The notes under the pieces are model-generated. The model saw nothing but the letters and a program-made list of their open reading frames with translations. It was not told the origin of the DNA and made no database searches. From positions 40,901 to 104,900 of the forward strand of contig DIYF01000017.1 of assembly GCA_002427745.1 (NCBI GenBank): a stretch of 64,000 bases of DNA. Direction: 5' to 3'. Positions 3,031-4,960 of this stretch are shown here, in pieces (within the stretch, counting starts at the first letter, position 1; each line of letters begins with the position of its first letter). The DNA comes from Roseivirga sp. UBA6061 (GTDB lineage Bacteria; Bacteroidota; Bacteroidia; Cytophagales; Cyclobacteriaceae). Made by a program: the position numbers and the translations under genes.

Positions 3031-3351
3031 CTCGATTCCCCTCCTCCGAGGAGTGGCCAGGGGTGGCATAGCAACTAACATAACTCTTCATTCATTCGCA
3101 TTGAAAATGCTCCAACTGCATTCCTTAACATACACAGGTCCTCGTTTCTGCTACGCTCAAACAAGGACCAGAAATCAGTAGCTGTTCGTCACTGCCAGAG
3201 AACCCTTAAGGCGACCGCGGCAGTCTCCTGGATAGTGAGTGGGATGCTTGCGGAGAGCCAGATAATAGACAATAGATTTTAGACCAAGGAGTGTTCAGAC
3301 TATCGTCACTGCCAACCTTCGTACCAAAGGCATAGAAACCCAATCAGATCA
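3031..3351. repeat. tandem intergenic repeat, copy A (~321 bp)
   Basis: This block begins CTCGATTCCCCTCCTCCGAG and is repeated almost unchanged in the following block. It contains three palindromic parts: the CTCCTC/GAGGAG hairpin at its start; GGTCCTCGTTT (3137-3147) pairing with AAACAAGGACC (3159-3169); and a GTCACTGCCAGAG...GCGGCAGTCTCC stretch resembling widespread REP-type elements. No coding frame is supported. Copy A differs from copy B by scattered substitutions and a few small indels, so the duplication is not brand new. Confidence 0.8.
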
Positions 3352-3681
3352 CTCAATTCCCCTCCTCGAAGGAGGGGTCAGGGGTGGGGTATAGCAACTG
3401 ATATAGCGCTTCGTTCATTCGCATTACAAATGCTCCAATTCCGTTCCTTAACATGCACAGGTCCTCGTTTCCGCTACGCTCAAACAAGGACCAGAAACTA
3501 GTAGCTTTTCGTCACTGCGAGAGAGCCCTTAAGGCGACCGCGGCAGTCTCCTGGATAGTGAGTGGGATGCTTGCGGAGAGTCAGATAATAGACGATAGAC
3601 AATAGATTTTAGACCAAGGAGTGTTCAGACCATCGTCACTGCAAACCTGCGTACCTAAGGCATAGAAACCCAATGAGGACA
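3352..3681. repeat. tandem intergenic repeat, copy B (~330 bp)
   Basis: Second copy of the preceding block, beginning CTCAATTCCCCTCCTCGAAG. Its opening hairpin is CCTCCT-CGA-AGGAGG followed by GGTCAGGGGTGGGG. Conserved landmarks are the GGTCCTCGTTT/AAACAAGGACC hairpin and the GTCACTGCGAGAG...GGCAGTCTCC element, both at the same spacing as in copy A. A third copy starts at 3682 and is interrupted after 19 bases by the IS110 element. Confidence 0.8.
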
Positions 3682-3749
3682 CTCAATTCCCCTCCTCTCA
3701 CCTTAGATTAGCTCTATAGGATTAAACTAATAATGGTAATAGCTTAGAA

Positions 3750-3890
3750 TAAAGGGGAACCAGTGAGTGAACCAACCTCCTTTTTAGAAACGGACTATCC
3801 TCCTGTTAGGTACTCACCGGTTTTAAAGAACACCAGGCCTGTATAAGAACTTATTTAACCTGTTAAGGTGCTTAGGAAAGTGTTCTATCC
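3750..3890 (+). ncRNA. predicted IS110 bridge RNA (target loop then donor loop)
   Basis: Two stem-loops are visible upstream of the transposase. The first has stem AACC-A-GTGAGT (3758-3768) with ACTCAC-C-GGTT (3812-3822). Its loop holds CCTCCTTT (3776-3783), like the left target 3691-3698, and CCTCCTG (3799-3805), the exact reverse complement of CA core plus right target 4935-4941. The second has stem AGAACAC (3827-3833) with GTGTTCT (3880-3886). Its loop holds ATAAGAAC (3843-3850), identical to the right element end plus core base (4928-4935), and TAAGGTG (3864-3870), the exact reverse complement of core plus left element end (3699-3705). Order and logic match the bridge RNA of IS621. The RNA ends are approximate. 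Confidence 0.75.
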
Positions 3891-3916
3891 CCATTGATTG
3901 ACTAAACATTTAAGTT

Positions 3917-4924
3917 ATGAGATTTATGTATTTTCTAGGTATAGACCTGAGTAAATTAAAGTTAGACTTATCTCTTTTTGACGGTGAAGAAGAACTTTTC
4001 AATGAAAAACGAAAGAATGAGATCGATTCTATTGAAGAAATACTGGATGAACTCATCGACAGATTCCAACTAAATAAGAATGAGCTACTTATATGTGCTG
4101 AATACACTGGTAACTATTCTTATCCACTGGTGAGAACAGCTCTGAAAAAGGGATTAAACCTCTGGATTGAAAACCCTGCTACTATTAAATGGAGTAGTGG
4201 AGTTCAACGCGGTAAAAGCGATAAGATTGATGCTAAAAGATTGGCTATTTATGCTTTTAGATTCCAGGACAAAGCTCGTTTAGTAACCGTAAATGACCCC
4301 ATTATTGACAAGTTGAAGTATCTCCAGTCAGAAAGAGAGTTACTTGTAGCTGACAGAGCCAAGTATTTGGCTCAGATTAAAGACCAACCCAACTTCATGC
4401 CCAGAACCATTTTTGAAGAAAAGAAAAAGAGACTGGATACTATTATCAAGTCTCTTTCTAAGGCCATCAAAATAATCGAAGAACAGGTGAAGAATCTAAT
4501 AAATCAAACAACCTGTTTCAAAGAACAAATGGAAATCATGACTTCAATAAATGGGGTTGGAGATCAGCTGGCTACTTACATGTTGATAGCTACAGAGGGC
4601 TTTCGTAAGTTCAATAACCCAAGACAATTCTGTTGTTATGCTGGCATTGCTCCTTTCAGATATACTTCGGGCACTAGTCAAAGGTCCAAGTCAAAGATAT
4701 CTCACAGAGCCGATAAAAAAGCAAAAAAACTACTCCATATGGCCGCATTATCTTCAGTCAAAAGCAATCACGAAATGAAGATCTATTTTAACAGGAAGGT
4801 TAAAGAGGGCAAAAATAAAATGACCGTCTTAAATGCAGTCAGGGCTAAGATCGTCCACCTAATCTTTGCTCTGATCAGAGAAAATCGAAAATATGACCAT
4901 TTTTATATCAATCAGTTTGCTTAA
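3917..4924 (+). CDS. IS110-family transposase (DEDD / Transposase_20)
   Basis: The 335-residue protein begins with the RuvC-like DEDD domain: D10 in FLGIDLSKLK, E62 in CAEYTGNY, and D102 and D105 in GKSDKIDAKR. A helical middle part (about 130-200) is followed by the C-terminal Transposase_20 domain from SINGVGDQLA (about 213) through CYAGIAPFRYTSGTSQ, which carries the serine expected to attack DNA. Length is typical and nothing is disrupted, so the enzyme may be active. It acts as a recombinase guided by the RNA encoded upstream. A start at 3926 is also possible. The gene is visibly more A/T-rich than its neighbours, which fits recent arrival. Confidence 0.9.
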   Translation: MRFMYFLGIDLSKLKLDLSLFDGEEELFNEKRKNEIDSIEEILDELIDRFQLNKNELLICAEYTGNYSYPLVRTALKKGLNLWIENPATIKWSSGVQRGKSDKIDAKRLAIYAFRFQDKARLVTVNDPIIDKLKYLQSERELLVADRAKYLAQIKDQPNFMPRTIFEEKKKRLDTIIKSLSKAIKIIEEQVKNLINQTTCFKEQMEIMTSINGVGDQLATYMLIATEGFRKFNNPRQFCCYAGIAPFRYTSGTSQRSKSKISHRADKKAKKLLHMAALSSVKSNHEMKIYFNRKVKEGKNKMTVLNAVRAKIVHLIFALIRENRKYDHFYINQFA

Positions 4925-4934
4925 TCCATAAGAA

Positions 4935-4960
4935 CAGGAGGGGTTAGGGGTGCTGCATAA
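4935..4960. repeat. right remnant of the split third intergenic repeat
   Basis: The sequence from the CA core on, AGGAGGGGTTAGGGGTG, corresponds to AGGAGGGGTCAGGGGTG in copy B. After about 25 bases the similarity is lost, so the third copy was a short stub when the IS entered it. An open frame running through this stretch into the cupin gene is not taken as coding. Confidence 0.6.

What the first reader, a model, noticed from the sequence alone, without database searches (positions are those of the whole stretch)
3701..4941. IS110 element whose bridge RNA can be decoded: four guides fit both element ends and target around a CA core
Seen directly: two stem-loops upstream of the transposase. 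In the first loop, CCTCCTG (3799-3805) is the exact reverse complement of core plus right target (4935-4941), and CCTCCTTT (3776-3783) fits the left target 3691-3698 with one G-U pair. In the second, ATAAGAAC (3843-3850) equals the right end plus core base (4928-4935), and TAAGGTG (3864-3870) is the exact reverse complement of core plus left end (3699-3705). Known: in IS621 (IS110 family) a bridge RNA with target and donor loops guides recombination. Inference: this is a Bacteroidota version with a CA core instead of CT, programmed for a palindromic target, so both target guides read CCTCCT.
Basis: partly seen in the sequence, partly recalled or inferred. Interest (0 to 1): 0.85.

Follow-up and report, generated by a model that had tools for sequence, protein, structure and literature searches.

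The report
IS110 element with readable bridge RNA
This is a small jumping gene whose own guide RNA can be read base by base against both of its ends and its landing site; in related elements guide and landing site change together, and the exchange point differs from that of the well-studied E. coli relative.

Summary
The four guides are at the stated coordinates; in 100,000 shuffles of the RNA region all four never occurred together. The transposase (3917-4924) is a complete IS110-group DEDD recombinase, aligned over residues 4-328 with solved IS621 and keeping the five catalytic positions.

In 28 elements with both ends resolved (27 of 123 loci held, plus the window) guides match their own flanks (left 6.1 of 7, right 5.1 of 6) but not others' (2.9, 3.1); 0 of 100,000 permutations of 18 cluster representatives reached the observed sum. 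Two paralogous hairpins in the window are exactly as long as the rebuilt empty site. Both loop stems covary.

Three additions. (1) The clade's usual core is TA, not CT: the second base is A at both junctions of all 28; the first varies. The window alone is CA/CA; guide bases facing the first core base fit by three pairs and a U-G wobble. (2) Joining right end to left end builds a Bacteroidota-type promoter in 28 of 28. (3) Targets are enriched for hairpins.

New variant of a known kind. Transcription and activity are untested.

The parts
3031..3066 (+). paralogous target hairpin, copy 1 (one mismatched arm base)
   Evidence: the repeat finder D5; same arm and loop length as the rebuilt empty site
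3352..3387 (+). paralogous target hairpin, copy 2 (CCCCTCCT-CGA-AGGAGGGG)
   Evidence: folds as an 8-bp DNA hairpin, z -2.89
3689..3698 (+). left target flank: left arm of the interrupted hairpin plus two loop bases
   Evidence: stem CCCCTCCT(CTC)AGGAGGGG
3699..3700 (+). core dinucleotide CA, left junction
3701..3916 (+). left non-coding end holding the bridge RNA
3704..3711 (+). TAGATTAG, -7 box (Bacteroidota TAnnTTTG, one mismatch), proposed to work only when joined to the right end
   Evidence: consensus from a passage of PMC9723704
3756..3824 (+). target-binding loop: arms 3756-3768 and 3812-3824
   Evidence: fold, covariation of 22 sequences
3776..3783 (+). left target guide (LTG) CCTCCTTT
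3799..3805 (+). right target guide (RTG) CCTCCTG; G3805 faces core C
3827..3886 (+). donor-binding loop: outer arms 3827-3833 and 3880-3886, inner stem 3838-3841 with 3873-3876
   Evidence: fold, alignment A3, covariation
3843..3850 (+). left donor guide (LDG) ATAAGAAC
3864..3870 (+). right donor guide (RDG) TAAGGTG; G3870 faces core C
3917..4924 (+). IS110-group DEDD recombinase, 335 aa; D10, E62, D102, D105 and S251 align with IS621 D11, E60, D102, D105 and S241
   Evidence: IS621 residue names from PMC11208158
4916..4919 (+). TTTG, -33-like box inside the end of the gene, 20 bases from the -7 box across the circle junction
4925..4934 (+). right non-coding end, ending ATAAGAA
4935..4936 (+). 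core dinucleotide CA, right junction
4937..4943 (+). right target flank, right arm of the hairpin (its first base is the core A at 4936)
   Evidence: a second insertion remnant (L002) shares it and then diverges

Best explanation
An IS110-group insertion sequence that moves as a circle under guidance of a bridge RNA encoded in its left end. Excision joins right end to left end across one CA (inferred); that junction puts a TTTG box 20 bases before a TAnnTTTG-type box and so switches on the bridge RNA (inferred from sequence in 28 of 28 junctions). The first loop pairs with the two halves of a hairpin, CCCCTCCT-CTC-AGGAGGGG, and the second with the element's own junction (complementarity shown; for the target loop also shown by covariation with flanks). 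The DEDD/serine recombinase then exchanges strands next to the CA core, as in IS621 (inferred by homology). In this clade the second core base is A throughout the 28 examined, while the first varies. Here the first has switched from the usual T to C at both junctions, and the guide bases facing it agree: RTG G, LDG C and RDG G pair, LTG is a U-G wobble.
For: Guide matches and chance test. Own versus cross guide-target scores and permutation. Loop covariation. Paralogous hairpins of equal length. A right-end remnant elsewhere in the same genome with the same AGGAGGGG flank. The rebuilt target of the TA relatives L006 and L007, CCCGATAGCTATCGGG, occurs 73, 25, 11, 1 and 4 times in the genomes of L006, L007, L009, L012 and L017 and 5 times in the window's genome, reversed control 0 in all six. 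Junction promoter in 28 of 28 against 5 of 28 integrated left junctions with at least 3 of 4 TTTG bases at spacing 19-21 and 0 of 28 with TTG at spacing 20. Core table. Recombinase family and alignment to solved IS621 and ISCro4.
Against: No transcript, circle or transposition was observed. Only one full copy is in this genome, so activity is unproven. The window's -7 box has one mismatch. The RNA does not fold better than shuffles. Several relatives fit poorly: L004 and L008 (left 2.5 of 7), L019 (left 4 of 7), L029, L060, L116, L119 and L122 (right 3.5-4 of 6). Guide bases facing the first core base agree only partly across the clade: RTG with the left core 18 of 28, LDG with the right core 20 of 28, RDG with the left core 9 of 28 and with the right core 10 of 28. 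The donor loop's outer stem pairs in only 72.8% of cells, and the slid controls favour any structure taken from the same sequences. The 28 elements are not independent (18 clusters).
Confidence: 0.93

Rival explanations
1. Same element type, but this copy is a dead relic: the guides are inherited and nothing moves now.
For: Single full copy; the 16 genus mates listed have no match at 1e-40; one -7 mismatch; U-G wobbles in the left guide; the only other trace in the genome is a short right-end remnant.
Against: Reading frame complete with all five catalytic positions; core and guides agree at CA; full-length relatives at 84-87% identity exist.
Confidence: 0.3
2. The recombinase chooses the hairpin by DNA shape or protein contacts; guide complementarity is incidental.
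For: Targets are enriched for hairpins: 8 of 18 cluster representatives have stems of 5 or more, against 66 of 768 cross pairs.
Against: Guides track the sequence of each target, not only its symmetry; L010, L018 and L060 have stems of only 2 and still match the left guide 7 of 7.
Confidence: 0.03
3. The four matches are chance or selection by the first reader.
For: Short motifs; each alone occurs in 0.4-2.6% of shuffles.
Against: 0 of 100,000 shuffles hold all four; the homologous positions match the homologous flanks in relatives.
Confidence: 0.01

Closest known systems
IS621 (IS110 group) and its bridge RNA, PMC11208160 and PMC11208158
   Same: DEDD recombinase with Tnp serine domain, bridge RNA in the longer left end, target loop then donor loop, LTG/RTG/LDG/RDG layout, two-base core included in the pairings, promoter at the RE-LE junction, REP-type palindromic target.
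   Different: CA (clade: NA) core instead of CT; passages of PMC11208158 say the second T is almost invariant in IS621 and related orthologues. Bacteroidota-type promoter boxes instead of sigma70 -35/-10. In the window the left target guide is shifted one base from the core.
ISCro4 (solved structure 9t56)
   Same: Sequence homologue over residues 4-328 of the recombinase.
   Different: Not compared further; bridge RNA and core not examined here.
IS1111 group and seekRNA, PMC11187229
   Same: Related DEDD recombinases; RNA-guided target choice.
   Different: IS1111 elements have longer right than left ends, the RNA in the right end and 7-17 bp subterminal inverted repeats (section read; passages); here the long end is left (216 bases against 10).
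TIGR-Tas
   Same: Weak NCBIfam match, 38.6 bits against a cut-off of 100.
   Different: Below cut-off; the window element is an insertion sequence. A guide array was not searched for.

Membership tests
IS110 group of the IS110 family | DEDD RuvC-like domain plus Transposase_20 domain | tested here: met
   PF01548 63.2 bits (cut-off 29), PF02371 74.5 (21.3); NF033542 170.7 (140)
IS110 group of the IS110 family | Catalytic D, E, D, D and serine | tested here: met
   D10, E62, D102, D105, S251 invariant in 25 sequences and aligned with IS621; IS621 numbering, the solved chain runs two residues ahead of it
IS110 group of the IS110 family | Long non-coding end on the left holding the RNA | tested here: met
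   216 bases left, 10 right; loops in the left end
IS110 group of the IS110 family | Target and donor loops complementary to flanks and own ends | tested here: met
   misfits among relatives are listed in the report
IS110 group of the IS110 family | Short core shared by both junctions, no target duplication beyond it | tested here: met
   CA at both ends; rebuilt site as long as paralogous hairpins; no true empty site of this very locus was available
IS110 group of the IS110 family | Promoter rebuilt at the RE-LE junction | tested here: met
   Sequence only: 28 of 28; transcription not tested
IS110 group of the IS110 family | Circular intermediate and RNA-guided recombination | not testable with these tools
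   needs PCR and a recombination assay
IS621-like elements with CT core | CT core with near-invariant second T | tested here: not met
   Second core base is A at both junctions of 28 of 28
IS1111 group | RNA in the right end | tested here: not met
   10-base right end
IS1111 group | Subterminal inverted repeats of 7-17 bp | not tested
   no dedicated search of the two ends was run

The most novel reading that the evidence does not exclude
In this Bacteroidota clade the recombinase fixes only the second core base (A), while the first is at least partly written in RNA and evolves: natural elements have switched it (T to C in the window, T to A in L120) with donor ends, target and core-facing guide bases changed together. 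Many elements also show different left and right cores (16 of 28, e.g. CA left, TA right), as if the left junction records the target's core and the right junction the donor's, so target and donor cores need not match. That would be a natural counterpart of the core reprogramming engineered in IS621, at a second core base that IS621 and its orthologues are reported to use almost never. (Probability lowered from 0.5 to 0.4 on re-check, because the RDG base agrees with either core in only 9-10 of 28.)
Probability: 0.4. Interest if true: 0.65.

Novelty: new variant of a known kind. Interest (0 to 1): 0.5.

Why it matters
Bridge recombinases are being developed for genome rearrangement, and the core is one limit on target choice. 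A clade with an NA core, and natural elements that differ at the first core base together with their guides, gives ready-made material to test which core base is read by protein and which by RNA. It also suggests that the junction-promoter logic of IS621 carries over to the Bacteroidota promoter type.

Tried and rejected
Rfam gave no match for the window at gathering thresholds. Single-sequence scans of genome contigs and viral contigs with the window protein gave no relatives; with the alignment A1, 321 genome stretches encoded a relative and the best 80 were kept, and 1 viral locus was found. Phage records: no match at 1e-20; plasmids: 4 records under 60% identity, not used. A phylum-wide sample of 395 genomes gave no match at 1e-75 beyond the window's own genome. 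P0001, 100% identical, is listed without a source, i.e. as the window's own protein, and is not counted as a relative. Energy folding alone did not separate the RNA from shuffles. I rejected a strict rule 'RTG matches the left core, LDG the right core': 18 of 28 and 20 of 28 only; for L086 and L088 these columns may be off by one. Comparing copies of more distant relatives to read their ends left boundaries too uncertain and is not counted. The hairpin is not abundant in this genome under strict patterns (2 sites; 3 sites, two of them in the window; 16 strand matches at 12 places against 4 in the reversed control).

Rows dropped before the 28-element counts, out of 123 loci held (27 used plus the window): L001-L003 (window genome); L013, L033, L054 (contig begins inside the left end); L016 (contig ends before the right end); L035/L090 (no right end recognised); L011 and L085, L089, L114, L115 (L011 a near-identical copy of L010; the others second fetches of loci already used); L020-L027, L030-L032, L036-L040 (putative two-target-loop group); L041, L117 (contig begins near the gene); L118 (same guides as L120; added for the hairpin test only, 29 elements); the rest of L042-L083 except L060, and L091-L113 (more distant, ends not resolved).

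Full report
What was checked. The element was read from the window. In 100,000 dinucleotide shuffles of 3750-3890 the single matches occur in 0.4-2.6%, three together once, four never.

The protein. The 335-aa frame 3917-4924 matches both Pfam domains of IS110 transposases and NCBI's IS110 RNA-guided transposase model. By sequence it aligns over residues 4-328 with the solved IS621 (4.3e-24) and ISCro4 (5.8e-23) recombinases. D10, E62, D102, D105 and S251 are invariant in an alignment of 25 sequences and align with the IS621 catalytic residues named in passages of PMC11208158.

Ends and empty site. The window holds imperfect repeats about 323 bp apart that end in the same hairpin. Rebuilding the occupied site with one CA gives CCCCTCCTCTCAGGAGGGGTTAGGGGTG; the nearest paralogous copy is CCCCTCCTCGAAGGAGGGGTCAGGGGTG, the same length; the other copy has the same length too, with one mismatched arm base. 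This fits a two-base core with nothing else gained or lost; the loop bases differ, so it is not a true empty site. A second trace elsewhere in the genome (contig C105) keeps 60 identical bases, the last 51 of the element, the CA core and GGAGGGG, then diverges: an independent insertion into the same right half-site, its left part gone.

Relatives. An alignment-based scan of genome contigs found 321 stretches encoding relatives, of which the best 80 were kept, and one of viral contigs found 1. Samples of the window's family and order gave more (54 of 295 genomes at 1e-40; 8 of 390 at 1e-75; the window's genome included in both). The 16 genus mates listed have no match at 1e-40. The left ends of 22 sequences align with conserved stems and two variable guide sites. 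The target loop keeps standard pairs in 94.7% of cells with 74 two-sided changes, the donor loop in 81.4% (outer stem 72.8%) with 24; in both, 0 of 500 shuffles reach the covariation score and slid controls fall away. The target-loop structure came from RNAalifold on the same alignment and the donor-loop structure was named by hand, which favours them over slid versions. Shuffles do reach two measures of the target loop (pairs with two-sided change 33 of 500, pair types 224 of 500) and one of the donor loop once (1 of 500).

Guides against flanks. For 28 elements with both ends resolved, the left guide matches its own left flank by 6.09 of 7 on average, against 2.86 for flanks of other clusters; the right guide 5.13 of 6 against 3.09. 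Permuting targets among 18 cluster representatives gave 153 at best against 200 observed, 0 of 100,000. Misfits: L004, L008 and L019 on the left; L029, L060, L116, L119 and L122 on the right. In G341 five copies fall into two guide types, CTCCGACCA and CTCGCTCCA, with left flanks CTCCGAC|CA, and CTCGCCC|CA or TCGCTCA|CA: redirection within one genome.

Targets of relatives. For L006, L007, L009, L012 and L017 the left guide begins CGATAGC, and the site rebuilt from L006 and L007 contains the perfect palindrome CCCGATAGC-TA-TCGGG. That string occurs 73, 25, 11, 1 and 4 times in the genomes of these five and 5 times in the window's genome, with a reversed control of 0 in all six. This supports the boundary and the TA core in relatives independently of the window. 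Across the set, hairpin stems at the insertion point exceed those of crossed flanks (sum 87 for 18 representatives; 0 of 20,000 permutations; 8 of 18 with stems of 5 or more, against 66 of 768 crosses); the other 10 representatives have stems of 2-4. In the window the stem is 8 bp with a 3-base loop, which is why both target guides read CCTCCT.

The core. The second core base is A at both junctions of all 28, and the guide base facing it is T in RTG and RDG of all 28. The first base is T at the right junction in 26 of 28, C only in the window, A only in L120; at the left junction it is T, C, A or G. The window has C at both junctions, with C in LDG and G in RTG and RDG. L120 has A at both, with A in LDG and T in RTG and RDG. 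Elsewhere the first-base pairing is loose: RTG agrees with the left core in 18 of 28, LDG with the right core in 20, RDG with the left core in 9 and with the right in 10; LTG was not tabulated. In 16 of 28 the left and right cores differ (two of these, L004 and L008, have doubtful left ends). Passages of PMC11208158 say that in IS621 and related orthologues the second T is almost invariant and the first C less conserved; passages of PMC11208160 describe changing CT to AT, GT or TT together with the guide positions in both loops. Of PMC11208160 I saw passages and sections 6 and 12, of PMC11208158 and PMC11187229 passages, no supplements, so whether NA cores appear there is unknown. A search for IS110 with 'core dinucleotide' lists only the first two papers.

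Junction promoter. When right end, core and left end are joined, each of the 28 has at least 3 of 4 bases of TTTG at spacing 20 (26 elements) or 19 (the two with a one-base-shorter right end, L086 and L088) before a box with at least 5 of the 6 fixed bases of TAnnTTTG; 4 of 28 have the full TTTG, and 24 of 28 the full -7 box, the window not among those 24. In the integrated state 5 of 28 have at least 3 of 4 TTTG bases at spacing 19-21, and none has TTG at spacing 20. TAnnTTTG is the sigma-A -7 consensus in a flavobacterium (passage of PMC9723704); the -33 TTTG box is recalled, not read. IS621 has a sigma70-like promoter in the same place.

Reading. An IS110-group element with a bridge RNA: shown by protein family, loop covariation and guide-flank covariation. 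Circle formation, transcription and strand exchange are inferred from IS621. The copy may or may not be active.

Limits. The closest relatives by protein (84-87%) could not be fetched with flanks, so when CA arose is unknown.

Noticed in passing
L020:1650-1960; also L032, L036, L040: Relatives in Bacteroides, Parabacteroides and Dysgonomonas have a long left end that reads as two tandem target-loop-like stem-loops before one donor loop (fold of L020, energy no better than shuffles; less clear in L030). In L020 both left guides resemble the flank CATGGAAA. I saw no usual right end near the gene, and 3.4-5 kb around them is 99-100% identical in the copies compared (L020 with L021, L022, L024-L026; L036 with L037-L039), as if riding in a larger mobile element beside ArsR-like and methyltransferase-like frames (my reading).
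   Followed up: partly
3031-3697: Imperfect repeats about 323 bp apart in a stretch without a listed frame of 80 aa or more, ending in the CCCCTCCT..AGGAGGGG hairpin; a DNA search of the held genome finds copies only here.
   Followed up: partly
   Followed up: yes
L118 and L120: AA-core relatives inserted in palindromes CCCAGGAATA-AA-TTCCTGGG and CCCCGGAATG-AA-TTCCGGGG; in L120, the one scored, RTG, LDG and RDG all agree with core base A.
   Followed up: partly
3776-3784: Two registers of the left target guide exist in the clade, adjacent to the core (e.g. L006, L015, L060) or one base away (window, L010, L016, L034); the structural reason is unknown (L016).
   Followed up: no
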